Assembly: GCF_019801605.1 (NCBI RefSeq)
Contig: NZ_JAHVIT010000002.1
Span: forward strand, 1-64,000
Direction of reading: 5' to 3'
DNA length: 64,000 bases
DNA from: Maritimibacter alkaliphilus
GTDB lineage: Bacteria; Pseudomonadota; Alphaproteobacteria; Rhodobacterales; Rhodobacteraceae
Program-made: the position numbers and the translations under genes
Notes under the pieces: model-generated
Database searches by the model: none
What the model saw: the letters and a program-made list of their open reading frames with translations, nothing else
Told to the model about the DNA's origin: nothing
Shown: piece by piece, positions 51,648-63,966 of the stretch
Numbering within the stretch: the first letter of the stretch is position 1
How the letters are laid out: each line of letters starts with the position of its first letter

Positions 51648-51679
51648 AAAAAGGGCGCGGCCCCTGCCGGACCGCGCCC
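51648..51679 (-). terminator. Terminator of the eight-gene acyl-CoA operon
   Basis: GGGCGCGG (51653-51660) pairs with CCGCGCCC (51672-51679); on the minus strand the hairpin is followed by TTTTT. It lies 25 bases after the thioesterase stop and just past the convergent FAD oxidoreductase gene. Confidence 0.85.
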
Positions 51680-51704
51680 CTCGCATTCGTCATCCGGCAG
51701 CCGT

Positions 51705-52115
51705 TCAGCTGCGCATCCGGAAAGCCCCGGAGCCGGTGGCCAGCAGGTTGCCCAGATCATCGCGCACCTTGGCCTCGGCAAAGAAGGTCTTGCGCCCGCC
51801 GCCGGTGCGGAAGCCTTCCGCGATGATCACCTTGCCCTGCAGCTGCCCGATGAAGTTCACGTTCAGCGACAGCGTCATGGCCAGCTGCTTGCGCTCAGGA
51901 TCGCCGGTGTAGCAGCCGGCAAAGCCCATCACCGTGTCGCAGAGCACGCCGTGAATCCCGCCGTGCAGGATACGGTATCGGTTCCCCAGATAGTCGTCCC
52001 AGGGCAGTTCGAAGCGCGAATAGCCCTCCTTCCATGCCACCAGCTTGAATCCCATGTGCCGCTGGAAGGGATAGGGATCCTCCACCAGCGCCGGGTCCAG
52101 TTCCAATTCGCTCAT
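51705..52115 (-). CDS. PaaI/hotdog family thioesterase
   Basis: The 136-residue hotdog protein shows RYRILHGGIHGVLCDTVMGFAG, the HGG loop and the catalytic Asp/Glu helix region, then LSLNVNFIGQLQGKVIIAEG. PaaI-type enzymes release CoA from acyl or aromatic acyl-CoAs. It is the last gene of the catabolic operon, 16 bases after the phosphotransferase gene, and probably relieves CoA trapping. GAGGAGACGG precedes the ATG at 52115. Confidence 0.9.
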   Translation of the reverse strand: MSELELDPALVEDPYPFQRHMGFKLVAWKEGYSRFELPWDDYLGNRYRILHGGIHGVLCDTVMGFAGCYTGDPERKQLAMTLSLNVNFIGQLQGKVIIAEGFRTGGGRKTFFAEAKVRDDLGNLLATGSGAFRMRS

Positions 52116-52131
52116 TCCGTCTCCTCGGGGG

Positions 52132-53154
52132 TCAAACACTGTGTGCCGCCTGAAGCCCGCCGCGCGCGAACTCGGGCACCGACCGGGCCACCTTCGCCGC
52201 GAGCGCGGGGTTCGAGGCGTTTCCGTCCAGCGCGCGTTTCTTGACGCCCTGGATGATACCGGCCATCCGGAAGAAGGTGAAGGCAAGGTAGAAGCCGAAC
52301 CTTTCAATCTGCGAAATGCCGGCCTCTGAACAGTAGGCTTCGAGGAAGTCTTCATCTTCCATCACGCCAAGCGCCTTGCGATCGAGGCCGCGCAGGCCGC
52401 GGTTCGTCTCGGGCATCTGCCACTGCATGATCACCGCGGCCACATCGGCGAAGGGATGCCCGGTGGTCGACAGCTCCCAGTCCAGCACCGCGAGGCAGCG
52501 CGGCTGCGTGCTGTCGAACAGCAGGTTGTCGATGCGATAGTCGCCATGCACCAGGGTGCGCCGCCCGTCCTCGCCCGGGATATTGGCATCGAGCCAGGCG
52601 ATCAGTTCCTCCATCTCGGGGATCACCTCGGTCTCGGAGGCGCGGTACTGCTTGGTCCAGCGGTCGATCTGGCGACGGTAGTAGTTCCCTTCCGGCCCGT
52701 AGTCGGACAGCCCCGTGGCCTGCAGGTCGACCCCGTGGATCGCGGCCAGTACGCGGGCCATCTCGTCGTTGATCCGGCGCCGCTGGTCGACGGCCAGGTC
52801 GGGCATCGTCGGCAGGCCGATGTTGCGGCCGCGGACCTCCTCCATCACGTAGAAGGCCGAGCCGATGACGCTCTCGTCCTCGCAGAGCGCATGCATCCGG
52901 GCCACCGGCACCGCCGTCCCGGCCAGGGCCTTCTGCACCCGGTACTCCCGGTCGACCGCATGGGCCGACTTCAGCAGCTTGCCCAGCGGCTTGCGGCGCA
53001 GCACGTAGGTGTCGCGCGGGGTCTTCAGACGATAGGTCGGGTTCGACTGGCCGCCTGCGAATTTCTCGGCCTCCAGCGGGCCCTCGAACCCCTCGACGTT
53101 TTCTTTCAGCCAGCGGGCGACCGCCCCGGTGTCCAGCGTTGCGCTGTCCTGCAT
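52132..53154 (-). CDS. ACAD10/11-type phosphotransferase (APH fold)
   Basis: The 340-residue protein has the aminoglycoside-phosphotransferase fold: GGQSNPTYRL and YVLRRKP (ATP-binding), HGDYRIDN at 203-210 with catalytic Asp205, and VLDWELSTTGHP (Asp225) for metal binding. It belongs to the group fused to acyl-CoA dehydrogenase in animal ACAD10/11, and to the LvaA group. Those enzymes phosphorylate the hydroxyl of hydroxyacyl-CoAs so that phosphate can be eliminated. Its place in an operon with dehydrogenases supports that role here. The substrate is not known. Confidence 0.88.
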   Translation of the reverse strand: MQDSATLDTGAVARWLKENVEGFEGPLEAEKFAGGQSNPTYRLKTPRDTYVLRRKPLGKLLKSAHAVDREYRVQKALAGTAVPVARMHALCEDESVIGSAFYVMEEVRGRNIGLPTMPDLAVDQRRRINDEMARVLAAIHGVDLQATGLSDYGPEGNYYRRQIDRWTKQYRASETEVIPEMEELIAWLDANIPGEDGRRTLVHGDYRIDNLLFDSTQPRCLAVLDWELSTTGHPFADVAAVIMQWQMPETNRGLRGLDRKALGVMEDEDFLEAYCSEAGISQIERFGFYLAFTFFRMAGIIQGVKKRALDGNASNPALAAKVARSVPEFARGGLQAAHSV

Positions 53155-53167
53155 GTCCCAGCCCTCC

Positions 53168-53833
53168 CTAGCTGTAGCTCAGGAACGCCGCCTCGGTGGC
53201 GGCGTCGATGTGCGGCGTTTCGTTGAAGCCGGTCAGCCATGTCTGGCGCGGCGTCACCAGCAGGCGCGTCACGGCGCAGTTCTTCATCTGCAGTTGCAGG
53301 GCCAGCTGCGCGGCGCCCGGCGCGCCAAGCGCCGCCGCCGCCAGCTGTCCGATCGCCCCGCCGGAGGAGACGGCCAGAACGCTCTGCGCCCCCTCCCGCG
53401 CCATGTGGGCCCGCGCCGCCTCGACCCGCGCGGTGAAGGCGGCCCATGTCTCGGGCGGGTCGGCCACCGCGTCTTGCTGCCATTCGCCCACCACGGCCCG
53501 CAGGGTGCGAAAATGGGTCTTGGCGTCCTGCATCATGCCGTCGGGCGCACCGCCGTCGCGGAACCGCGCCGACAGCAGGCCGGCGAAGTCGTATTCGTCG
53601 AGGCCCGGGTGCTCCTCGACCTGCGCCGAGAGGCCCAGCCCCTCCAGCAGCCCTGCCATCGTCTCCTTCTGGCGGCGGAGCGTGCCGGTGACGAAACGCT
53701 CCGGCCGCAGGCCCTGCCCCCTCAGCGCCTGCCCGAGAGCATACGCCTGCGCATGGCCCTTCTCCGACAGCACGTCGTAGTCAGCCGCCCCGAAGGAGGC
53801 CTGCCCGTGCCGCGCGACGGTCAGCGCGACCAT
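53168..53833 (-). CDS. Histidine phosphatase superfamily protein with altered second catalytic site
   Basis: The 221-residue protein begins [15 protein letters not shown] with the canonical Arg8-His9-Gly10, and TGTLRRQKETMAGL follows as in phosphoglycerate-mutase-like phosphatases. The usual VSHGG motif near the end is VSSGG (Ser157), so the second catalytic histidine is missing. It may be a phosphate-binding or weak phosphatase subunit. It overlaps the thiolase stop (TGATG) and precedes the kinase gene, which suggests that kinase and phosphatase homologue act in the same pathway. Confidence 0.85.
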   Translation of the reverse strand: MVALTVARHGQASFGAADYDVLSEKGHAQAYALGQALRGQGLRPERFVTGTLRRQKETMAGLLEGLGLSAQVEEHPGLDEYDFAGLLSARFRDGGAPDGMMQDAKTHFRTLRAVVGEWQQDAVADPPETWAAFTARVEAARAHMAREGAQSVLAVSSGGAIGQLAAAALGAPGAAQLALQLQMKNCAVTRLLVTPRQTWLTGFNETPHIDAATEAAFLSYS

Positions 53834-55035
53834 CAGAGCACCTCGAAGAGGCCCGCCGCGCCCATGCCGCCGCCGACGCACATGGTGCAGACCACGTAGC
53901 GCGCGCCGCGGCGCTTGCCCTCGATCAGCGCGTGGCCGACCATCCGCGCACCGGACATGCCATAGGGATGCCCGACCGAGATCGCGCCACCGTTCACGTT
54001 CAGGATCTCGTCCGGGATGCCGAGGACACGGGCCGACTGCAGGACCTGGCAGGCGAAGGCCTCGTTCAGCTCCCACAGGCCGATGTCGTCCATCTTGAGG
54101 CCATGGGCCGCCAGCAGCCTGGGCACCGCGTGGATCGGCCCGATGCCCATCTCGTCGGGGTCGAGGCCCGCGGCCATGACGCCCACGTAGCGGCCCAGCG
54201 GTTGCAGCCCGCGTTTTTCGGCCAGCTTCGCCTCCATCAGGACCGAGGCCGAGGCCCCGTCGGAGAGCTGCGAGGCATTGCCCGCGGTGATGAACTTGCC
54301 CTCTTTCACCACCTGCCCGTCCTTGAAGACGGGGGCCAGCGATTGCAGCCCCTCCAGCGTGGTGGAGGGACGGTTGCCCTCGTCCTGCGCCAGCGTGACC
54401 TCCTTGTAGGAAACCTCCTTCGTCTCCTTGTCCATGACGGCCATGGTGCTGGTCAGCGGCACGATCTCGTCATCGAACCGGCCCGCCTGCTGCGCGGCGG
54501 CGGTGCGCTGCTGCGAGCGGAGCGAATAGGCGTCCTGATCCTCGCGGCTGACGCCGTACCGCTCGGCCACCACTTCGGCGGTTTCCAGCATGGACATGTA
54601 GAGCGCGGGCACATGGTCAGTGATCCACGGGTCGCGCAGGTGGTCGGTGCGCATCTTCTGGTTCTGCACCAGCGAGATCGACTCGACCCCGCCGCCGATG
54701 ACCACGTCCATGCCGTCCTGCACCACCTGCTTGGCCGCCGTGGCGATCGCCATCATGCCCGAGGCGCACTGCCGGTCCATGGACATGCCCGCGACCGAGG
54801 TGGGCAGGCCCGCGCGGATCACGGCCTGACGGCCGATGTTGCCCCCGGTGGAGCCCTGCTGGATCGCGCAGCCGATCAGGCAGTCCTGCACCTCGCCGCC
54901 CTCCAGCCCGGCGCGGTCGACGGCGTGGCGCACGGCATGGCCGATCAGCTCCTGCGCCTGCGTGGCGTTGAAGGCCCCGCGAAAGGCCTTGCCGATCGGG
55001 GTGCGTGCGGTTGAAACGATGACAGCATCGCGCAT
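53833..55035 (-). CDS. Thiolase (acetyl-CoA C-acyltransferase, degradative)
   Basis: The 400-residue thiolase shows active Cys90 in [38 protein letters not shown] and [12 protein letters not shown]. The motifs suit a FadA-like enzyme of beta-oxidation. It removes acetyl-CoA or propionyl-CoA from the chain degraded by this operon. The SDR gene lies 27 bases upstream and the histidine phosphatase overlaps its stop. Confidence 0.93.
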
Positions 55036-55062
55036 GGGAAATCTCCTCGAAGTCTGTTGGGT

Positions 55063-55992
55063 TCAGCGCGCGTCCGGCAGCGCGAGGCCAAGCGCCTCGG
55101 CGGCCATGGCGGCATATTTTCGGGTCTGGGCAAAGGCGCCGGGCATGACCTCCGCGCCCTCCGGGTCGCGGATACGGCCCATGGCGGCCATGACACCCTC
55201 GGGGCTCAGCTCCGCGCCGGTCAGGGTCACGCCGCGGGTTTCGGTGATCCGGGTCTCGGTAAAGGCCCCGGCCCCCGCGCCGAGGATCATCCGGCTGGGC
55301 GCCTCTTCGCTCACGAGCGCCAGCAGGCCCGGCGTGATCGTCTCGGGCTTCAGCAGTTCCGCGACCTCGGGCGGCAGCAGGCCCTCGGTCATCCGCGTCG
55401 CGGCGGTAGGGGCCAGCAGGTTGGCGCGGATGTCGTACTTCTCGCCTTCCTGCGCCAGCACGTTCATCAGCCCCATCATCGCCGCCTTGGCCGCGCCGTA
55501 GTTCGACTGGCCGAAGTTGCCGTAGAGCCCCGAGGCCGAAGTGGTGTAGACGATACGACCATACGCATTCGAACGGAAATGATCCCAGAGCGCCTTGGTC
55601 GGCACGACGGAGCCCATGAGATGCACCTCGACCACGCGGGCGAAGTCCTCCAGCGTCATCTTGGCAAAGGTCTTGTCCCGCAGGATGCCCGCATTGCAGA
55701 CGAGGATGTCGACCTTGCCCCAGCGGGCGATCGCCTGATCGACCATGTCCTGCACGGCCTCCGGATCGGTGACATTGGCGCCGTGGGCCATGGCCTCGCC
55801 CCCTGCCGCCACGATCTCGGCCACCACGGCATCGGCGGCGGCGGTGCTGCTGCCGCTGCCGTCCGTCGCCACGCCAAGGTCGTTGACCACGACCTTCGCG
55901 CCACGCGCCGCCAACCCGAGGGCATGGGACCGGCCAAGGCCGACCCCCGCGCCCGTGACGATGGCCACCCGGCCGTCGAACCTGATGCTCAT
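55063..55992 (-). CDS. SDR family 3-hydroxyacyl-CoA dehydrogenase-like protein (MFE-2 type)
   Basis: The 309-residue short-chain dehydrogenase has VAIVTGAGVGLGRSHALGLAARGAKVVVNDLG, the NAD motif typical of the peroxisomal multifunctional enzyme 2 dehydrogenase domain. NAGILRDKTF and the active-site Tyr and Lys in GQSNYGAAKAAMMG are also present. It oxidises a 3-hydroxyacyl-CoA. The MaoC gene overlaps its start, matching the dehydrogenase and hydratase halves of MFE-2. Confidence 0.92.
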   Translation of the reverse strand: MSIRFDGRVAIVTGAGVGLGRSHALGLAARGAKVVVNDLGVATDGSGSSTAAADAVVAEIVAAGGEAMAHGANVTDPEAVQDMVDQAIARWGKVDILVCNAGILRDKTFAKMTLEDFARVVEVHLMGSVVPTKALWDHFRSNAYGRIVYTTSASGLYGNFGQSNYGAAKAAMMGLMNVLAQEGEKYDIRANLLAPTAATRMTEGLLPPEVAELLKPETITPGLLALVSEEAPSRMILGAGAGAFTETRITETRGVTLTGAELSPEGVMAAMGRIRDPEGAEVMPGAFAQTRKYAAMAAEALGLALPDAR

Positions 55993-56450
55993 GAGGCCTC
56001 CCCGAAGTGGCGCCGTCCCAGCCAGTCGGCGACGAGCGCGGGCTTGGCCTGTCCCTCGATCTCGACCGTGACGGTGTAGATGGTCTGGATTTCCGTCGGG
56101 CTCTTGTCCTCGACCGCCTTCAGCACGAAGACCCCCCGGACCCGCGCACCCGAGGGCACCGGCGAGACGAAGCGCACCCGGTCGAAGCCGTAGTTCACCC
56201 CCATGGTCACGCCCTCCAGCTCCGGCCCGCCGTCGATGACCATGGCCGAGAGCATCGAGAGCGTCAGGAAACCATGGGCGATGGTGGTGCCGAAGGGCGT
56301 GTCCCGGGCGCGCTCCGGGTCGATGTGAATGTACTGGTGATCCTCGGTCACGTCGGCGAAGCGGTCGATCCGCTTCTGGTCGATGGTGAACCAGCGCGAG
56401 GTTCCGACCTCCTGCCCCACCAGTCCGCGCAATTCCTGCCGTGTCACCAT
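55989..56450 (-). CDS. MaoC family enoyl-CoA hydratase
   Basis: The 153-residue hotdog hydratase has FADVTEDHQYIHIDPERARDTPFGTTIAHGFLTLSML, with the conserved Asp and His of (R)-specific hydratase 2. It adds water to an enoyl-CoA and passes the product to the overlapping SDR. It lies three bases after the upstream acyl-CoA dehydrogenase stop. Confidence 0.93.
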   Translation of the reverse strand: MVTRQELRGLVGQEVGTSRWFTIDQKRIDRFADVTEDHQYIHIDPERARDTPFGTTIAHGFLTLSMLSAMVIDGGPELEGVTMGVNYGFDRVRFVSPVPSGARVRGVFVLKAVEDKSPTEIQTIYTVTVEIEGQAKPALVADWLGRRHFGEAS

Positions 56451-56453
56451 GCC

Positions 56454-57575
56454 TCAGAACCCTCTCGCCTGTGCCACGCGCCCGGCGTGATAGCCGTAGT
56501 CGCCCAGCCATTCCGCGCCCACCCGGGCGCGCTTCATGTAGAACCCCATGTCGAAGTCATCGGTCATGCCGATGCCGCCATGCATCTGGACGCCCTCGCT
56601 GACCACCTGCCGCGCGGTGCGCGCGGCGCGGGCCTTGGCCAGCGACACGGCGAGGTCGGCCTCGTCCGGGGTGTCGTCCAGCACCCGGCCCGCGTTGGCG
56701 ATGGCGCTCGCGGTCACCTCGATCTCGCACCACAGGTGCGCCGCCCGGTGCTGCAGCGCCTGGAACGCGCCGATGGTGCGACCGAACTGCTTGCGCTCCT
56801 TCAGGTAGCCCGCCGTCATGGCAAAGGCGCCGGTGGAGAGGCCCGCAAGCTCTGCCGCCATGGCCGCCTGTCCCGCGTTCAGGGCCGGGCCGAGGGCAGC
56901 CAGACCGCCGTCCACCTCGCCCACCACGTCGGCGCCGGTGGCCTCGACCCCGGCGAACTCGATCCGCGCATGGTCGCGGCTGTCGACGGTGGCCTGCACC
57001 TGCCGCGTGAGACCCGCGCGCCCCGCCTCGATATCGAAGAGCGTCAGGCCCTGCGCCTCGCCCGGGCGGCCCGCGGTGCGCGCCAGCACCAGCAGGCGAT
57101 CCGCACTGCTGCCGTCGGCGACGAAGCATTTGCGCCCGGTCAGGCGGAAGCCATTGCCCGCCGCCTCCGCCGTCATGGCGGTGCGGGCGGGGGCATGTTT
57201 CGCCCCCTCGTCCACCGCAAGCGCATAGGTCAACTCACCGCTGGAAATCGCCGCCAGCCGGTCATGGGCCGCACCGCGCAGAGCCGTAGCGGCCAGCACG
57301 GCGGAGGAGAGGAAGGGCGTCGCGGCCAGCGTCACGCCCATCTCCTCGGCGAGGATGCCCGCCGCGCGGTGCCCCATGTCGGAGCCCCCCGCCGCCTCCG
57401 GCACCAGCACCCCGGCCCAGCCCATCTGGGCCATCTCGCGCCAGAGGCCCGGGTCCCAGGCCCGGCCCCGGTCACGGTTCTCGCGCAGGGCCCGGACCGG
57501 CGCGCTGTCGTCAAGGAACCCCCGCGCCATGTCGCGCAGCATTCCCTCGTCTTCTGTCGGCAGAAGGCTCGTCAT
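56454..57575 (-). CDS. Acyl-CoA dehydrogenase, shorter subunit lacking the EIQ motif
   Basis: The 373-residue protein has the dehydrogenase core (KERKQFGRTIGAFQALQHRAAHLW and VSEGVQMHGGIGMTDDFDMG) but no GGxxEI segment at the end. The C-terminus is FYMKRARVGAEWLGDYGYHAGRVAQ instead. The adjacent upstream gene encodes a dehydrogenase that has the motif. The pair resembles heteromeric enzymes of sterol side-chain degradation. It lies 12 bases after its partner. Confidence 0.88.
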   Translation of the reverse strand: MTSLLPTEDEGMLRDMARGFLDDSAPVRALRENRDRGRAWDPGLWREMAQMGWAGVLVPEAAGGSDMGHRAAGILAEEMGVTLAATPFLSSAVLAATALRGAAHDRLAAISSGELTYALAVDEGAKHAPARTAMTAEAAGNGFRLTGRKCFVADGSSADRLLVLARTAGRPGEAQGLTLFDIEAGRAGLTRQVQATVDSRDHARIEFAGVEATGADVVGEVDGGLAALGPALNAGQAAMAAELAGLSTGAFAMTAGYLKERKQFGRTIGAFQALQHRAAHLWCEIEVTASAIANAGRVLDDTPDEADLAVSLAKARAARTARQVVSEGVQMHGGIGMTDDFDMGFYMKRARVGAEWLGDYGYHAGRVAQARGF

Positions 57576-57587
57576 TGCCGGAATTCC

Positions 57588-58784
57588 CTATGCTGAAGGC
57601 AGGCCGAGGACCCGCTTGGAGAGGATGTCGAGCATGATCTCGCTCGTTCCGCCCTCGATCGAATTGGCCTTGGTGCGCAGCCATTCGGCGGCGAGACCGC
57701 CATGCGGGCCGTCCCATTCCGCCCCGTCGCTGCCGGTGGCGGACATGAGCAACTCGTAGCGGCGCTTGTTCAGCTCGGTGCCCATGTACTTGAGCATGGC
57801 CGAGGCATGGCCCGCACCCTGCCCGCTTTCGGACATGTCCTTGTAGCGCTCCAGCGTGAGGGCGGTGGCGAGCGTGTCGATCTCCACCTCCATCGCCTCG
57901 GCGCGCAGGGCGGGATCGTCGAGGATGCCCTCGTCCAGCGAGCCGAGGAAGTCACCCAGCGACCGCCCGCCCAGCAGGCCACGTGCCCCGCCGCCGATCA
58001 TCTCGCGCTCGTGGGTCAGCAGGTGCTTGGCCACGTCCCAGCCCCGGTTCACCTCTCCCACGACACGGCCGAGCCCGATGGCATCGACCTTGGGCACCTT
58101 CACGTTGTCGAAAAAGGTCTCGCAGAACGGGGACTTGCCCGAGATCAGCCGGATCGGGCGGGTCGTGACGCCCTCGCTTTCCATGTCGATCAGCAGGAAG
58201 GAAATGCCCTTGTGCTTGGGCGCCTCGCGGTCGGTCCGCACGAGGGCAAAGATCCAGTCCGCCTTGTCGGCGTAGGAGGTCCAGATCTTCTGTCCGTTGA
58301 CCAGCCAGTGATCCCCCCTGTCCTCGGCCCGGGTCTGCACGTTGGCCAGGTCACTGCCTGCGCCCGGCTCGGAATAGCCCTGGCACCAGCGGATCTCGCC
58401 CCGGGTGATCTGCGGCAGGTAGTGGGCCTTCTGCGCCTCGCTGCCGAAGGCCAGCAGCGCGGGGCCCAGCATCCAGAGCCCGAAACTCTCCAGCGGGGTC
58501 GGCGCCCCGGCGCGGGCCAACTCCTCGCGGAAGACCTTCTCCTGCGCGCGGGTGAACCCTGCGCCACCGTATTGTTCAGGCCAGCGGGGCGCGGTGAAGC
58601 CACGTTCGGCGCAGCGCTCCAACCAGTGACGTTGCGATTCGGAGCGGAACTGCCACCGCTTTCCGCCCCAGCAGATGCTATCCTCGGTGCGCGGCTGATT
58701 GCGCAGATCCTCAGGTAAAGCCTCGTGAATCCAGCTTGCTATCGTGGATCTGAAGCGCTCCAGATCCCCTGCCTCCTCGGACAT
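57588..58784 (-). CDS. Acyl-CoA dehydrogenase, motif-complete subunit (first gene of operon)
   Basis: The 398-residue flavoenzyme shows WCQGYSEPGAGSDLANVQTRA, GQKIWTSYADKADWIFALVRTDREA and a C-terminal EGGTSEIMLDILSKRVLGLP. It begins the eight-gene catabolic operon and faces the Liv-type importer across a 137-base divergent region. GGGAGGAACGG precedes the ATG. A segment near residues 262-278 is Gly-rich (GGGARGLLGGRSLGDFL). Its substrate is probably the imported compound after CoA activation, although no CoA ligase is present in the window. Confidence 0.92.
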   Translation of the reverse strand: MSEEAGDLERFRSTIASWIHEALPEDLRNQPRTEDSICWGGKRWQFRSESQRHWLERCAERGFTAPRWPEQYGGAGFTRAQEKVFREELARAGAPTPLESFGLWMLGPALLAFGSEAQKAHYLPQITRGEIRWCQGYSEPGAGSDLANVQTRAEDRGDHWLVNGQKIWTSYADKADWIFALVRTDREAPKHKGISFLLIDMESEGVTTRPIRLISGKSPFCETFFDNVKVPKVDAIGLGRVVGEVNRGWDVAKHLLTHEREMIGGGARGLLGGRSLGDFLGSLDEGILDDPALRAEAMEVEIDTLATALTLERYKDMSESGQGAGHASAMLKYMGTELNKRRYELLMSATGSDGAEWDGPHGGLAAEWLRTKANSIEGGTSEIMLDILSKRVLGLPSA

Positions 58785-58818
58785 TCCGTTCCTCCCAGAC
58801 GGTTTATGTTCGCAATGC

Positions 58819-58869
58819 AGAATAGAATTTCACAGATTTCTTGACAAGCCGCCCTGCCCGGCTTTTGAT
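58819..58869. promoter_or_regulatory. Back-to-back promoters with overlapping -35 elements
   Basis: On the plus strand TTGACA (58841-58846) and TTTGAT (58864-58869) are 17 bases apart. On the minus strand TTGTCA (complement of 58842-58847) and TATTCT (complement of 58819-58824) are also 17 bases apart. The two -35 boxes share five bases, so both operons probably fire from one shared control region. Confidence 0.6.
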
Positions 58870-58921
58870 CAGGCCCAGCGAGAGGGCTTGGGAGGGCTCT
58901 CTCCAAACGGGAGGAGACATC

Positions 58922-60157
58922 ATGAAACTCATCGCATCCGCCGCTCTTGCGGCGGCCATGTCCTTTGTCGCCCTTGGCGCATCGGCAGACACCCTGAAGG
59001 TTGCCTTCATCGACCCGCTGTCCGGCCCCATGGGCCCCTCGGGCGAATCCGGGCTCAAGCACTTCATGTTCGCAGCGGAGGAGCTGAACGCCGATGGCGG
59101 CGTGAACGGGGCGCAGGTCGAGGTCGTCGGCTTCGACAACAAGGTGAACCCCAAGGAAAGCCTCGTGCAGCTGCAAAAGGCGATCGACCAGGGCATCCGT
59201 TACGTGGTGCAGGGCAACGGCTCGTCCGTGGCCTCGGCGCTGATCGACGCCATCGAGAAGCACAACAAGCGCAACCCGGGCGAGGAGGTGCTGTTCCTGA
59301 ACTACGCCGCCGTCGACCCGGCCTTCACCAACGAGAAGTGCAGCTTCTGGCACTTCCGCTTCGATTCCGACGCCGACATGAAGATGGAAGCGGTCACCGA
59401 CTGGGTCGCGGCACACCCCGACATCAAGTCGGTCTACATCATCGGTCAGGACTATTCCTTCGGCAAGGCCGTGGCCGCCGCCGCCGTGCGGATGCTGGAG
59501 GTGAAGGCCCCCGAGGTGAAGATCGTCGGCAACGAACTGCACCCGCTGGCCAAGGTGAAGGACTTCACCCCCTACGTGCAGAAAATCATCAACTCCGGCG
59601 CGGATGCGATCATCACCGGCAACTGGGGCTCCGACATGGTGCTGCTGGTGAAGGCGGCGATCGACGCGGGCTGGGACAAGCCGATCCTGACCTACTACGG
59701 CGGCTCCACCGGCGCGGCCACCGCCATGGGCGAGGCCGCGGTCGGCAAGGTGAAGCAGGTGTCGGAAGTGGTGGTGAACTACCCCTCCTCCCCCGAGCAG
59801 GAGGAGCGGATCGCCAAGTTCGAGGAGAAGTATCCCGAGAACAACTACTACTACCACCGTGCCTTCAACCTGATGCACTTCCTCGACGCGGCGGCAGAGA
59901 AGGCGGGATCGAACGATCCGGTCAAGGTCGCCTTCGCCATGGAAGGCATGGAGATGGACGGCGCCTACGGGCATCTGACCATGCGCAAGGACAACCACCA
60001 GATCCTTCAGGATCTCTTCGTCGGCACCTTCTCGGCCAACCCGCCGCGCGGGGTCGAGGGTCTGCCGCTGGGGTGGATGGCCGAGGACAAGGACCATATC
60101 GCCGCCGCGGCGACCTCGATGGAGACCACCTGCAAGATGGACCGACCCGAGATGTGA
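58922..60157 (+). CDS. livK: Liv-type ABC transporter substrate-binding protein
   Basis: The 411-residue periplasmic protein begins with a signal peptide that ends after residue 22 (GASA). It has the type I periplasmic binding fold: VAFIDPLSGPMGPSGESGLKHF, VVQGNGSSVASALIDAIEKH, VYIIGQDYSFGKAVA and NYYYHRAFNLMHFLDAAAE. It belongs to the branched-chain amino acid binding family, but the neighbouring catabolic operon suggests a carboxylic acid ligand instead. GGAGGAG precedes the ATG at 58922. Confidence 0.9.
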   Translation: MKLIASAALAAAMSFVALGASADTLKVAFIDPLSGPMGPSGESGLKHFMFAAEELNADGGVNGAQVEVVGFDNKVNPKESLVQLQKAIDQGIRYVVQGNGSSVASALIDAIEKHNKRNPGEEVLFLNYAAVDPAFTNEKCSFWHFRFDSDADMKMEAVTDWVAAHPDIKSVYIIGQDYSFGKAVAAAAVRMLEVKAPEVKIVGNELHPLAKVKDFTPYVQKIINSGADAIITGNWGSDMVLLVKAAIDAGWDKPILTYYGGSTGAATAMGEAAVGKVKQVSEVVVNYPSSPEQEERIAKFEEKYPENNYYYHRAFNLMHFLDAAAEKAGSNDPVKVAFAMEGMEMDGAYGHLTMRKDNHQILQDLFVGTFSANPPRGVEGLPLGWMAEDKDHIAAAATSMETTCKMDRPEM

Positions 60158-60232
60158 CGGGGCCCGTCATCCGCAGTTGAAACAGGGGCGCCGTGCAACG
60201 ACGCGGCGCCTCCGCGATCCAGAGAGGGAACC

Positions 60233-61165
60233 ATGGAAACGATCGTATTCTCGCTCCTGAACGGGGTGATTTACGGCCTGTTGCTCTTCATGCTGTCATC
60301 GGGGCTGACGCTCATCTTCTCGATGATGGGCGTGCTGAACTTCGCCCACGCCAGCTTCTACATGCTCGGCGCCTATTTCGCCTATACCGTCACCGATGCG
60401 ACCAGCTACTGGTTCGCGCTGATCTTTGCCCCGATCCTCGTGGGCCTCGTCGGCGCGGGGGTGGAGAAATGGGGCCTGCGCCGCGTCCACGCCAACGGCC
60501 ACGTGGCGGAACTGCTCTTCACCTTCGGTCTGGCCTACCTGATCGACGAGGTGATCAAGATCGTCTACGGGCGCAACGCCGTGGACTACCGGGTGCCCGA
60601 GGCGCTCGATTTCCCGCTCTTCACCCTCTACGGCGCGCAATACCCGGCCTACCGGATCTTCATGCTCTTCGTCGCCGTGGCGATGCTGGTGGCGCTCTGG
60701 GTGCTGCTGAAGCGTACCCGCGCGGGCCTGATCATCCAGGCGGCGCTGACCCATCCGCACATGGTCGGCCATCTGGGCCACAACGTGCCGATGATCTTCA
60801 TGACCGTCTTCGGGGTGGGCTGTGCACTTGCGGGCCTCGCCGGGGTGATCGGCGGCAACTACCTCGTGACCGATCCGTTCATGGCCGCCTACATGGGGCC
60901 CATCGTCTTCGTGGTCGTTGTGATCGGCGGCATGGGCAGCCTCGAGGGCGCCTTCGTCGCCTCGATCCTGCTGGGCCTGCTGCAGACCTTCGCGGTCTCG
61001 GTGGATGCGAGCTTTGCCGATCTCTTCGGCTGGATCGGCCTGTCATCGGCGACCGAGGTCGGCCGCATCACCATTGCGCAGCTGGCGCCGATGCTGCCCT
61101 ACCTGCTGCTCGTCCTGATCCTCTTCGTCCGCCCGCGCGGCCTGATGGGAGAACGTGAACTGTGA
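60233..61165 (+). CDS. livH: Liv-type ABC transporter permease LivH
   Basis: The 310-residue permease has about eight transmembrane segments and family motifs SSGLTLIFSMMGVLNFAHASFYMLGAYF and GMGSLEGAFVASILLGLLQTF. It forms half of the channel with LivM. GAGAGGGAACC precedes the ATG, 75 bases after the binding-protein gene. Its stop overlaps the livM start (GTGA). Confidence 0.92.
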   Translation: METIVFSLLNGVIYGLLLFMLSSGLTLIFSMMGVLNFAHASFYMLGAYFAYTVTDATSYWFALIFAPILVGLVGAGVEKWGLRRVHANGHVAELLFTFGLAYLIDEVIKIVYGRNAVDYRVPEALDFPLFTLYGAQYPAYRIFMLFVAVAMLVALWVLLKRTRAGLIIQAALTHPHMVGHLGHNVPMIFMTVFGVGCALAGLAGVIGGNYLVTDPFMAAYMGPIVFVVVVIGGMGSLEGAFVASILLGLLQTFAVSVDASFADLFGWIGLSSATEVGRITIAQLAPMLPYLLLVLILFVRPRGLMGEREL

Positions 61166-62427
61166 CCGACATGACTCAAGACTACGCGGATCTCGCGCCC
61201 TCGGCCTCGGCCAAGTTCTATGGGCGCATCCTGCCGATCCTGCTCTTTGCCCTGCTGGTCGTGGTGATCCCCTTCCTCGGGCCGTCCCGCACCATGTATT
61301 CGCTGCTGAACGTCATGGCGATCAACATCGTCTTCGCGCTCAGCTACAACATGCTGCTGGGACGCTGCGGGCTGCTGTCCTTCGGGCATGCGGTCTACTA
61401 CGGGCTGGGGGGCTACTGCGCCGTCCATGCCATGACCTGGATCGAGGCGGGCACCAGCCCGTTCTGGGCCAACTTCCCGGTCTTCGGCCTGCCGCTGGTG
61501 GGCTTTGCCGGCGGGGCGCTTGCAGGCGCCATCATCGGCTGGCCCTCCTGCCGCCGGGCCGGCACCCCCTTCGCCATGATCTCGCTCGGCGTGGCCGAGC
61601 TGATCGCGGCGGCGGGCTTCATGTTCCTGTCCTTCTTCGGCGGGGAAATGGGCGTCTCGGGCGACCGGATGAACGGGCCCGCGCTCTTCGGCCTCTCCAT
61701 GGGTCCGGTCGAGGACGTCTACTGGTTCATGGCCTTCTGGGTCGTGGCGGGTCTGGTGGGCATGTATGCCTTCACGCGCACGCCGCTCGGCAAGCTGTCC
61801 GAGGCGACGCGCGACAACCCGCAGCGCGTGCAGTTCATCGGCTACGACCCGACCCGCGTGCGCTACCTCGTCTTCATCGCGGCGGGTGCCTTCGCCGGGA
61901 TGGCGGGCGGCATGTCGGCGGTGAACTACGAGATCTTCACCCCCGAGGCCGTCTCGCTCATCCCGTCGGGCTTCGTGCTGATCATGGCCTACGTGGGCGG
62001 CATCGGCTACTTCGTCGGGCCGATCCTCGGCGCGGTGCTGCTGACCTTCATGCAGTCGATGCTGTCGGACTACACCGAGGCCTGGCTGCTCTACCTCGGC
62101 GTGCTCTTCATCTCGATCGTGATGTTCGCCCCCGGCGGGCTGGCGGGCATCGTCTTCGGCGTCGCCCATACGGCCCGGAATGGTGAAACCGGCGCGGTGC
62201 TGAAACGCTGGGGCGGTCAGGCGGCGGGCATCCTGCTGGCGCTCGCAGGGCTGATCGTGCTGGTCGAGGTCTCGACCCGCTGGTCGAACGGCTACGGCGA
62301 GATCTTCGAACCCTTCGGCCTGCACCTCACCTTCACCAACCCGCTGACCTGGGTCCTCATCGTCGTGCCCTTCGCGGCGGGTGTGGCGATCCTGCGCCGG
62401 CTGAGCCGCGAGGAGGACCCGGCATGA
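61162..62427 (+). CDS. livM: Liv-type ABC transporter permease LivM, with C-terminal extension
   Basis: The 421-residue permease shows the LivM features NIVFALSYNMLLGRCGLLSFGHAVYYGLGGYC and AGAFAGMAGGMSAVNYEIFTPE. Its last about 85 residues add two more hydrophobic segments (AAGILLALAGLIVLVEV and WVLIVVPFAAGVAIL), longer than the usual LivM of about 320-350 residues. The GTG start at 61162 overlaps the livH stop. An ATG three codons later is possible. The stop overlaps livG (ATGA). Confidence 0.9.
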   Translation: MTDMTQDYADLAPSASAKFYGRILPILLFALLVVVIPFLGPSRTMYSLLNVMAINIVFALSYNMLLGRCGLLSFGHAVYYGLGGYCAVHAMTWIEAGTSPFWANFPVFGLPLVGFAGGALAGAIIGWPSCRRAGTPFAMISLGVAELIAAAGFMFLSFFGGEMGVSGDRMNGPALFGLSMGPVEDVYWFMAFWVVAGLVGMYAFTRTPLGKLSEATRDNPQRVQFIGYDPTRVRYLVFIAAGAFAGMAGGMSAVNYEIFTPEAVSLIPSGFVLIMAYVGGIGYFVGPILGAVLLTFMQSMLSDYTEAWLLYLGVLFISIVMFAPGGLAGIVFGVAHTARNGETGAVLKRWGGQAAGILLALAGLIVLVEVSTRWSNGYGEIFEPFGLHLTFTNPLTWVLIVVPFAAGVAILRRLSREEDPA

Positions 62428-63182
62428 CCAACGCGCTCGAGATCACCGACCTGCGCAAGAGCTTCGGCCCGGCGCAGATCATCAACGGGGTGAACCTGAC
62501 GATACCGCGTGGCGAACGCCACGCGGTGATCGGACCCAACGGGGCGGGCAAGTCGACGCTCTTCAACCTCGTCTCGGGGCTCTTCGCGCCCACCTCCGGC
62601 TCGGTCCGGCTTAACGGCGAGGAGATCGGCGGGATGAAACCCTTCCTGATCAACCGCCGCGGGCTGTCGCGCTCGTTCCAGGTGTCGAACATCTTTGCCA
62701 AGATGACGGTGCGGGAAAACGTGCGCTGCGGCGTGCTGCATTCGCTGGGACAGGGCTACAGCTTCTGGCGCAACATCGGATCGCAGCGCGACGTGCAGGA
62801 GAAGACCTCGGCCGTGCTGGAACACTGCGGGCTGATCGACAAGGCGAACACGCCTGCCGCCCTCCTGCCCTACGCCGACCAGCGGGCGCTGGAGATCGCG
62901 ATCACCATCGCGGGCGGGGCCGAGGTGATCCTGCTGGACGAACCCACGGCCGGCATGAGCCATTCCGAAACCGACCGCGCCGTGGCGCTGATCGAGAAGG
63001 CGACCGAGGGCAAGACGCTGATCATCGTCGAGCATGACATGGGCGTGGTCTTCAACCTCGCCGACCGGATCTCGGTGCTGGTCTACGGCGAGATCATCGC
63101 CACCGGCACGCCCGAGCAGATCCGCAACGATCCCAAGGTGCGCGAGGCCTACCTCGGCGAGGAAGTGGAGGACGCGGCATGA
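62424..63182 (+). CDS. livG: Liv-type ABC transporter ATP-binding protein LivG
   Basis: The 252-residue ATPase has Walker A GPNGAGKST and Walker B VILLDEPTAGMS. In place of the LSGGQ signature it has LPYADQRALEIA, an atypical form of the LAYGxQRxLE seen in LivG proteins. The H-loop is VEHDMGVVF. It overlaps both neighbours by four bases and forms a heterodimer with LivF. Confidence 0.93.
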   Translation: MTNALEITDLRKSFGPAQIINGVNLTIPRGERHAVIGPNGAGKSTLFNLVSGLFAPTSGSVRLNGEEIGGMKPFLINRRGLSRSFQVSNIFAKMTVRENVRCGVLHSLGQGYSFWRNIGSQRDVQEKTSAVLEHCGLIDKANTPAALLPYADQRALEIAITIAGGAEVILLDEPTAGMSHSETDRAVALIEKATEGKTLIIVEHDMGVVFNLADRISVLVYGEIIATGTPEQIRNDPKVREAYLGEEVEDAA

Positions 63183-63904
63183 ACGCGCAAAGCCAGATGC
63201 AGGAGCCGATGCTCTCGGTCCGGGACCTGCACGCCTATTACGGCAAGTCCCATGTGCTGCGGGGCGTCACCCTGCACATCCAGCCGGGCGAGGTCATCGC
63301 CCTGCTGGGCCGCAACGGCGTGGGCCGGTCCACCACCGCCAAGGCGATCATGGGAGAGGTCGCGCCCAAGGGCGAGATCACCTTCAAGGGACAGCCGATC
63401 GCGGGGCTGGAAAGCCACCGCATCGCGCGGCTCGGCCTCGGCTACGTGCCCGAGAGCCGGGACATCTTCCCGACGATGACGGTGCGCCAGAACCTGATCC
63501 TCGGGATCAAGGACATGAAGCGGCCGGGCAAGTACTCGATCGAGCAGATGCTGGAGATGTTCCCCAACCTCGCGGCCCGTGCCGACAACCCGGCGGGGGT
63601 CCTGTCAGGCGGCGAGAAACAGATGCTGACCATGTGCCGGACCCTGATGGGCGATCCCGACCTGATCATCATCGACGAACCGACCGAGGGGCTGGCGCCC
63701 AAGATCGTGCAGCAGATCGGCGACATGATCGCCGAGATCGCCAAGACCGGTGTTGCCATCCTGCTGGTGGAACAGAAGCTCTCCATCGCGCTGAGGATCG
63801 CCAGCCGGGTCTATGTCATGGGCCACGGGGAAATCGTCTTCGAGGGTACGCCCGCGGAGTTCCGCACCCGCGACGACGTGCGCAAGGAGTGGCTGGAGGT
63901 CTGA
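63179..63904 (+). CDS. livF: Liv-type ABC transporter ATP-binding protein LivF with Arg in Walker A
   Basis: The 241-residue ATPase has a normal signature LSGGEKQML and Walker B LIIIDEPTEGLAP. The Walker A sequence is GRNGVGRST at residues 44-52, with Arg50 where Lys is nearly invariant. This could weaken ATP hydrolysis at its site or be a tolerated variant of this subfamily. It is the last gene of the importer operon, and an AT-rich double hairpin follows 16 bases after the stop. Confidence 0.92.
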   Translation: MNAQSQMQEPMLSVRDLHAYYGKSHVLRGVTLHIQPGEVIALLGRNGVGRSTTAKAIMGEVAPKGEITFKGQPIAGLESHRIARLGLGYVPESRDIFPTMTVRQNLILGIKDMKRPGKYSIEQMLEMFPNLAARADNPAGVLSGGEKQMLTMCRTLMGDPDLIIIDEPTEGLAPKIVQQIGDMIAEIAKTGVAILLVEQKLSIALRIASRVYVMGHGEIVFEGTPAEFRTRDDVRKEWLEV

Positions 63905-63920
63905 CCCCTCCGGCCCGCGA

Positions 63921-63966
63921 CCAAGAATTTTGGAAAATTCTTGGGAAAATTCTTCGAAGAATTTTC
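63921..63966 (+). repeat. Dispersed AT-rich double hairpin, A module (copy 2), likely terminator
   Basis: The element is the same as at 7596-7641 except for one base. It has AAGAATTTT-GG-AAAATTCTT (63923-63942) and the palindrome AAAATTCTTCGAAGAATTTT (63946-63965). It follows livF closely and probably ends the importer operon. Confidence 0.82.

What the first reader, a model, noticed from the sequence alone, without database searches (positions are those of the whole stretch)
51648..63966. Divergent import and acyl-CoA degradation locus with a kinase/phosphatase module
An eight-gene catabolic operon (two acyl-CoA dehydrogenases, MaoC, SDR, thiolase, histidine-phosphatase homologue, APH-type kinase, thioesterase) faces a five-gene Liv-type ABC importer. 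The kinase is of the ACAD10/11 and LvaA type. ACAD10/11 proteins of animals fuse such a kinase to an acyl-CoA dehydrogenase, and they phosphorylate hydroxyacyl-CoAs before elimination. Here the same parts are separate genes in one operon together with a specific importer. I infer a pathway for an imported 4-hydroxy or otherwise beta-oxidation-resistant carboxylic acid. No CoA ligase and no small LvaB-like partner is visible in the window.
Basis: partly seen in the sequence, partly recalled or inferred. Interest (0 to 1): 0.7.

Follow-up and report, generated by a model that had tools for sequence, protein, structure and literature searches.

The report
Split importer and hydroxy-acid kinase pathway
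A marine bacterium carries an uptake pump and a set of fat-burning enzymes that probably take in and break down acids blocked by a hydroxyl group, using the same phosphorylation trick as animal ACAD10/11, with the missing enzymes on another contig under what looks like a shared DNA switch.

Summary
Confirmed: eight catabolic genes (51705-58784, minus) face a five-gene Liv-type importer (58922-63904, plus).

The kinase is of the ACAD10/11 kind. The two acyl-CoA dehydrogenases beside it are not: they look like a heteromeric pair and lack the LvaC/ACAD11 residues.

An LvaC-type dehydrogenase and two CoA ligases lie on contig C8. In a same-genus relative that block sits 7-17 kb past the binding-protein gene. 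A 17-base pattern occurs three times in this 4.9 Mb genome: between the window operons, between the LvaC-type gene and one ligase, and before the other ligase.

In 198 family genomes the kinase (110) and LvaC-type dehydrogenase (114) co-occur in 109. The importer lies within 10 kb of a kinase in 24 of the 32 genomes that have it. The binding protein lacks two residues that, by recall, hold the amino group in LivK.

The 'phosphatase' has Ser for the second catalytic His in 96 of 96 subfamily sequences, so it may be a partner of the kinase.

Most likely an imported 4-hydroxy or 4-oxo acid pathway. The substrate is unknown and nothing was tested biochemically. New variant of a known kind.

The parts
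51705..52115 (-). PaaI-like hotdog thioesterase
   Evidence: TIGR00369 43.4 bits over cut-off 36.6; start set to 52115
52132..53154 (-). APH-fold kinase of the ACAD10/11-LvaA kind
   Evidence: PF01636 183 bits; PDB 3dxp E 2.6e-112 and ACAD11 (8v3v) E 1.1e-71; HGDYRIDN and DWELS
53168..53833 (-). histidine-phosphatase-fold protein with Ser158 in place of the second catalytic His
   Evidence: PF00300 82.9 bits; residues; 11 of 11 conventional homologues aligned keep His; model pLDDT 86.6
53833..55035 (-). thiolase (acetyl-CoA C-acyltransferase)
   Evidence: TIGR01930 405.7 bits over cut-off 240.55
55063..55992 (-). SDR, probable 3-hydroxyacyl-CoA dehydrogenase (role inferred)
   Evidence: PF00106 145 bits; best NCBIfam PRK07791, below cut-off
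55989..56450 (-). MaoC hydratase
   Evidence: PF01575 97.8 bits
56454..57575 (-). small ACAD, no Glu/Asp base found in the alignment
   Evidence: Tcur3481 (6wy8_A) is the second best PDB hit; best NCBIfam PimD, far below cut-off; alignment
57588..58784 (-). large ACAD with catalytic Glu (SIEGGTSEIM)
   Evidence: best PDB hits Tcur3483 (6wy9_A, 6wy8_B) and 4x28_A; best NCBIfam PimC, far below cut-off; alignment
58816..58832 (+). operator-like site TGCAGAATAGAATTTCA in the divergent intergenic region
   Evidence: one of exactly three matches of the pattern in the genome; in the gap of 17 of 22 divergent-type loci with up to one mismatch
58922..60157 (+). periplasmic binding protein of a Liv-type importer
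   Evidence: PF13458 257 bits; Val for Thr102 and Tyr for Glu226 of LivK
60233..61165 (+). LivH-type permease
   Evidence: NCBIfam matches to UrtB and LivH models, all below cut-off
61162..62427 (+). LivM-type permease
   Evidence: position in operon and orthologues in relatives; not scanned itself
62424..63182 (+). LivG-type ATPase
   Evidence: position in operon and orthologues in relatives; not scanned itself
63179..63904 (+). LivF-type ATPase
   Evidence: PF00005 104.6 bits

Best explanation
One regulon, split over two contigs in this Pseudooceanicola-like genome, imports and degrades a carboxylic acid with a hydroxyl (or a reducible oxo group) at C4. Proposed order: the importer takes the acid up; a C8 ligase makes the CoA thioester; a C8 SDR next to the LvaC-type gene may reduce a 4-oxo group; the window kinase, probably helped or restrained by the histidine-phosphatase-fold protein, phosphorylates the 4-hydroxyl; the C8 LvaC-type ACAD eliminates phosphate to a 2-enoyl-CoA; MaoC, SDR and thiolase of the window shorten it; the ACAD pair dehydrogenates the next, perhaps bulkier, acyl-CoA. 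An IclR-type regulator (C8) probably binds the shared site. Shown by sequence: gene families, residue signatures, co-occurrence, synteny, shared site. Inferred: substrate, every reaction, roles of the regulator and the phosphatase-like protein.
For: Kinase matches ACAD11. Of 198 genomes: kinase 110, LvaC-type 114, both 109. All 24 importer-linked kinase genomes have an LvaC-type ACAD somewhere, 11 of them within 20 kb of the importer. C8 holds SDR, LvaC-type ACAD (RLGPGRIHHCMR, VDGPDEVH), two ligases and IclR; the same-genus genome G192 has that set on the importer's own contig. Pattern: 3 matches in 4.9 Mb, all in these loci; over 198 genomes 15 of 87 matches lie within 10 kb of a kinase, 0.3 expected at an assumed 3.75 Mb per genome. 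Binding protein lacks LivK Glu226 and Thr102 equivalents. Sulfitobacter guttiformis pSD118 carries importer, kinase, ACAD pair, LvaC-type ACAD and ligases together.
Against: No substrate or activity was tested. The LvaC-type enzyme is not beside this kinase, and a second kinase with its own LvaC-type ACAD and ligase exists on C6, so pairing the window kinase with the C8 enzyme is inference. 8 of 32 importer genomes do not have the kinase within 10 kb, and 27 of 62 named loci with long flanks show no kinase over 250 bits, so the importer also serves something else. The pattern was settled after I had seen the C8 sites, and 72 of 87 matches, the two C8 ones included, lie away from a kinase. In G192 the C8-like block has no match with up to one mismatch (L178), and two further exact matches there lie on other contigs, one of them inside a frame that reads as DNA polymerase I.
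Confidence: 0.66

Rival explanations
1. The ACAD pair itself replaces LvaC in this operon: it eliminates the phosphate or oxidises the phosphorylated acyl-CoA, and the C8 and C6 LvaC-type enzymes belong to other pathways.
For: Among 128 kinase loci the pair (26) and an LvaC-type ACAD (76) were found together in only one, L046, as if one stood in for the other.
Against: The large ACAD keeps the ordinary Glu and lacks the Arg/His/Arg helix; the small ACAD has no base. All 24 importer-linked kinase genomes keep an LvaC-type ACAD somewhere.
Confidence: 0.12
2. Ordinary branched-chain amino-acid or fatty-acid catabolism: a Liv importer for leucine-like compounds beside a generic beta-oxidation operon; the kinase is incidental.
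For: The pSD118 orthologue is annotated as a branched-chain amino acid ABC transporter; MaoC, SDR and thiolase are generic beta-oxidation families.
Against: Glu226 and Thr102 of LivK are Tyr and Val in 10 of 10 family members aligned (roles recalled); the best NCBIfam amino-acid model scores 90.5 against a cut-off of 477; the kinase is linked to the importer in 24 of 32 genomes.
Confidence: 0.1
3. Side-chain degradation of a bulky acid (steroid, bile-acid-like or dicarboxylic), in which the kinase and LvaC-type ACAD remove a hydroxyl; the 4-hydroxy step is one detour in a longer spiral.
For: The ACAD pair resembles Tcur3483/3481 and 4x28, recalled as steroid side-chain enzymes; MaoC plus SDR plus thiolase is the matching set.
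Against: No ring-degradation gene was recognised by eye among the genes of the 19 kb beyond the window; no dedicated search was made. Scores to the pimeloyl models are far below cut-off.
Confidence: 0.12

Closest known systems
lva (levulinic acid) operon of Pseudomonas putida and P. citronellolis
   Same: LvaA-type kinase, LvaC-type ACAD, SDR, CoA ligase; P. citronellolis also has a histidine-phosphatase homologue beside the kinase and no lvaB (PMC6692424, passages read)
   Different: Here a Liv-type importer instead of an acetate-permease-like symporter; LvaC-type ACAD and ligases on another contig; extra ACAD pair, MaoC, SDR, thiolase; nearby regulator IclR-type rather than sigma54-type
ACAD10/ACAD11 of animals
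   Same: Kinase homologous over nearly its whole length; [quoted passage not shown]
   Different: Kinase and elimination enzyme are not fused and not in one operon; ACAD10 carries a HAD domain that restrains the kinase (passage), here the neighbour has a different phosphatase-like fold
Heteromeric ACADs Tcur3483/Tcur3481, 4x28 (recalled as FadE26/FadE27), PimC/PimD
   Same: Adjacent large and small subunits, catalytic Glu in the large one only
   Different: Well below the PimC and PimD model cut-offs; beside a kinase; substrate and oligomeric state unknown

Membership tests
LvaA/ACAD10-11 kinase-elimination pathway | APH-fold kinase close to ACAD10/11 with its catalytic Asp motifs | tested here: met
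   HGDYRIDN and DWELS
LvaA/ACAD10-11 kinase-elimination pathway | LvaC-type ACAD (Arg, His, Arg on one helix plus Asp base) in the same operon | tested here: not met
   Large ACAD has Glu and no Arg/His/Arg, small ACAD no base
LvaA/ACAD10-11 kinase-elimination pathway | LvaC-type ACAD present in the genome | tested here: met
   C8:34961-36163 and C6:54268-55467; motifs
LvaA/ACAD10-11 kinase-elimination pathway | CoA ligase linked to the pathway | tested here: met
   none in the window, two on C8 around the LvaC-type gene and two of the three pattern sites; the link is by synteny and site, not by activity
LvaA/ACAD10-11 kinase-elimination pathway | LvaB-like small partner | not tested
   no LvaB sequence at hand
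LvaA/ACAD10-11 kinase-elimination pathway | phosphorylates a 4-hydroxyacyl-CoA | not testable with these tools
   needs an enzyme assay
Heteromeric ACAD pair (Tcur3483/3481, PimCD) | adjacent large and small subunits, base in one only | tested here: met
Heteromeric ACAD pair (Tcur3483/3481, PimCD) | score over the PimC and PimD model cut-offs | tested here: not met
   268.1 against 623.85 and 168.1 against 652.7 bits
Heteromeric ACAD pair (Tcur3483/3481, PimCD) | the two chains form one enzyme | not testable with these tools
   needs co-purification
Branched-chain amino-acid importer (LivJ/LivK) | residues that hold the amino acid: Ser79, Thr102, Glu226 of LivK (roles recalled) | tested here: not met
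   Ser79 kept, Thr102 is Val, Glu226 is Tyr in 10 of 10
Histidine phosphatase superfamily, branch 1 | Arg-His motif, second Arg, Glu | tested here: met
   R9, H10, R55, E81 in 96 of 96 sequences
Histidine phosphatase superfamily, branch 1 | second catalytic His | tested here: not met
   Ser in 96 of 96; 11 of 11 conventional homologues from such loci keep His

The most novel reading that the evidence does not exclude
The histidine-phosphatase-fold protein is not a phosphatase of the pathway but a partner of the 4-hydroxyacyl-CoA kinase: with the first His kept and the second replaced by an invariant Ser, it binds the phosphorylated acyl-CoA or the kinase and controls it, doing the job of LvaB in P. 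putida and of the HAD domain in ACAD10. Three unrelated proteins would then have been recruited to govern one kinase family.
Probability: 0.3. Interest if true: 0.75.

Novelty: new variant of a known kind. Interest (0 to 1): 0.57.

Why it matters
Animal ACAD10/11 were shown only recently (2024 and 2025 papers) to degrade 4-hydroxy acids. This locus would give the same chemistry a dedicated importer, a regulator and a longer downstream pathway in marine bacteria, so its natural substrate could be found with a binding protein and a deletion mutant. The shared site and the synteny suggest that the parts form one system even when split, and the invariant His-to-Ser change makes the role of the kinase's phosphatase-like neighbour a direct question.

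Tried and rejected
Rejected: that the operon's ACADs are the ACAD10/11-type elimination enzyme; that the organism lacks CoA ligases for the pathway. Made unlikely: that the importer is a leucine system; that the ACAD pair replaces LvaC altogether (LvaC-type ACADs exist somewhere in all 24 importer-linked kinase genomes).

Led nowhere: PA4913 literature (prompted by a recalled identity of 4xfk that no call confirmed, so not used); Ruegeria transporter papers (no hit); structure search of the phosphatase-like protein (tool switched off); PDB sequence search with it (no hit); pseudophosphatase papers (listing and abstract starts only); heterotetrameric ACAD papers (listing only). The first gene-calling runs were noisy in this GC-rich DNA, and an overlap filter hid the phosphatase-like gene in some loci; counts come. 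The kinase tree shows importer, pair, LvaC and phosphatase states mixed over it (13 to 19 changes) and was not used further.

Limits: the 198 family genomes are nearly one per genus but not independent. One search covers 128 of the 129 kinase matches (G173 was not fetched), and several of its 27 'neither' loci are cut by contig ends. One search kept the best 80 of 328 loci. At least one of the 27 'no kinase' loci, L195, has the phosphatase-like gene, so a kinase may have been missed there. The 96 sequences were picked by a profile built from this subfamily (over 90 bits), so they test invariance within it, not the whole superfamily.
Full report
What is there. The window is the first 64 kb of contig C2 of a 4.9 Mb genome. 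Its binding protein is 96% identical to that of Pseudooceanicola nanhaiensis DP2Y115-3. All 13 genes of the finding are real. The eight catabolic genes are packed with gaps of at most 27 bases. The five importer genes run the other way and end at 63904.

The kinase. PF01636 scores 183 bits. The closest solved proteins are 3dxp (E 2.6e-112) and ACAD11 (E 1.1e-71). A second, 43% identical kinase lies on C6 beside an SDR, an ACAD and a CoA ligase, with genes that read as TRAP transporter parts next (ligase, TRAP named by eye).

The two ACADs are not the ACAD10/11 part. The published signature of ACAD10/11 and LvaC is three residues (Arg, His, Arg) on one helix and a catalytic Asp (PMC12440821, passages read). 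I aligned the window pair with LvaC-type enzymes from relatives. The large window ACAD has an ordinary Glu and none of the helix residues; the small one has no base. Their closest solved relatives include the paired chains Tcur3483/3481 and 4x28. Their NCBIfam scores are best for PimC and PimD but far below cut-off.

Where the missing parts are. A profile of LvaC-type ACADs finds two in this genome: C6:54268-55467 and C8:34961-36163. Around the second are an SDR directly behind it, two AMP-binding CoA ligases, an IclR-type regulator, an oxidoreductase and a DsbA-like protein. In the same-genus genome G192 most of that set (both ligases, SDRs, IclR, oxidoreductase, LvaC-type ACAD) lies on the importer's own contig, roughly 7 to 17 kb past its binding-protein gene. 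In named relatives (Thalassovita, Sediminimonas, Litorivita, other Pseudooceanicola) one of these ligases lies in the 10 kb flank in 12 of 16 divergent loci with long flanks (my reading; the 16). So the finding's 'no CoA ligase' is true of the window but not of the genome.

Co-conservation. In 198 family genomes the kinase (E up to 1e-40) is in 110, the LvaC-type ACAD (E up to 1e-90) in 114, both in 109, one alone in 6, neither in 83. The binding protein (E up to 1e-60) is in 32, within 10 kb of a kinase in 24. All 24 have an LvaC-type ACAD somewhere, and 11 of the 32 have it within 20 kb of the importer. Fisher's test gives 2e-48 for kinase and LvaC-type, without correction for kinship. In 62 named loci with long flanks, 35 have the kinase near the importer: 16 divergent as here, 19 in one direction. 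The other 27 (among them Pseudovibrio, Labrenzia, Alcanivorax, Salinisphaera) show no kinase over 250 bits, so the importer family is not tied to it. On plasmid pSD118 of Sulfitobacter guttiformis the importer, kinase, pair, a ligase and an LvaC-type ACAD lie within about 22 kb.

A shared site. The divergent gap of relatives holds a conserved block that reads TGCRGAATNNNRTTTCR. Each ambiguous letter is seen among relatives, although I had also seen the C8 sequences when I wrote the pattern down. In this genome it matches exactly three times: C2:58816 between the operons, C8:36233 between the LvaC-type gene and one ligase, and C8:40807 before the likely start of the other ligase. The reversed control pattern matches nowhere. 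With up to one mismatch it is in the gap of 17 of 22 divergent-type loci, exactly in 13. Of 20 other loci scanned exactly, 10 hold a match somewhere. Over 198 genomes there are 87 exact matches, 15 within 10 kb of a kinase against 0.3 expected at an assumed 3.75 Mb per genome; the other 72, including the two C8 sites here, are elsewhere. The reversed pattern gives 7 over the same genomes (my count). In G192 the C8-like block has no match with up to one mismatch. An IclR-type regulator is the likely binder because one sits in the C8 block and beside the kinase in many relatives; that is inference.

The binding protein. Aligned with E. coli LivJ and LivK, the family keeps Ser79 but has Val for Thr102 and Tyr for Glu226 in all ten members aligned. 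By recall the last two hold the amino group of leucine. A carboxylate without an amino group fits better.

The phosphatase-like protein. It lies directly before the kinase. It accompanies 24 of 26 kinase loci with the pair, 7 of 51 window-type kinase loci with an LvaC-type ACAD, and 0 of 27 C6-type loci. In 96 of 96 non-identical sequences the first Arg-His, the second Arg and the Glu are kept, and the second catalytic His is Ser (sets overlap in organisms and were picked by a profile of this subfamily). Eleven of eleven ordinary histidine phosphatases from such neighbourhoods keep that His. A model shows a well-folded protein (pLDDT 86.6). Relatives with the same change are in 47 of 299 genomes of the phylum; of 30 short loci read, 17 show a kinase-like or LvaC-type frame within about 1.5 kb and 13 do not (my count), so the change is not specific to the kinase pairing. 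In P. citronellolis a histidine-phosphatase homologue lies beside the LvaA homologue and no lvaB was found; its authors guessed it removes phosphate from 4-phosphovaleryl-CoA (PMC6692424, passages read). The missing His argues against a plain phosphatase but does not exclude one.

Reading. The best-supported account is an imported 4-hydroxy or 4-oxo acid pathway of the LvaAC/ACAD10-11 kind, split over two contigs. Steps shown by sequence are the families, signatures, linkage and site. The reactions, the substrate and the regulator's role are inferred. Six searches of the paper library listed no paper on such an importer-linked cluster; the library holds only open-licence papers, and searches listed 10 of 31 and 10 of 295 hits.

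Noticed in passing
G000:C6, about 53477-61086 (locus L010): Second, complete-looking set: SDR, LvaC-type ACAD, CoA ligase, kinase and TRAP-like transporter genes (the last named by eye), resembling a classical lva cluster.
   Followed up: partly
L259 (Sulfitobacter guttiformis pSD118, NC_019364.1): Importer, kinase, ACAD pair and LvaC-type ACAD on a plasmid, with a beta-lactamase-fold serine hydrolase and an acetoacetate--CoA ligase behind the importer; the hydrolase follows the importer also in loci without a kinase (L065, L067, L069, L071).
   Followed up: partly
L265-L292: A wider histidine-phosphatase-fold subfamily (mostly RHGQASFG) with Ser for the second His; in 13 of 30 short loci read no kinase-like or LvaC-type frame is next to it.
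   Followed up: partly
L190, L200, L210, L234, L241: The same importer family without a detected kinase nearby in Labrenzia, Pseudovibrio, Thalassobaculum, Salinisphaera and Alcanivorax; its ligand there is unknown.
   Followed up: no
L299 (G192:C3:487918): A match of the site pattern just before another CoA-ligase-like frame in the same-genus relative, perhaps a further member of the regulon or chance.
   Followed up: no
G000:C2:64046-71036, just beyond the window: Beyond the importer lies what looks like a polyamine gene block (oxidoreductase, ABC transporter, aminotransferase), named by eye only.
   Followed up: no
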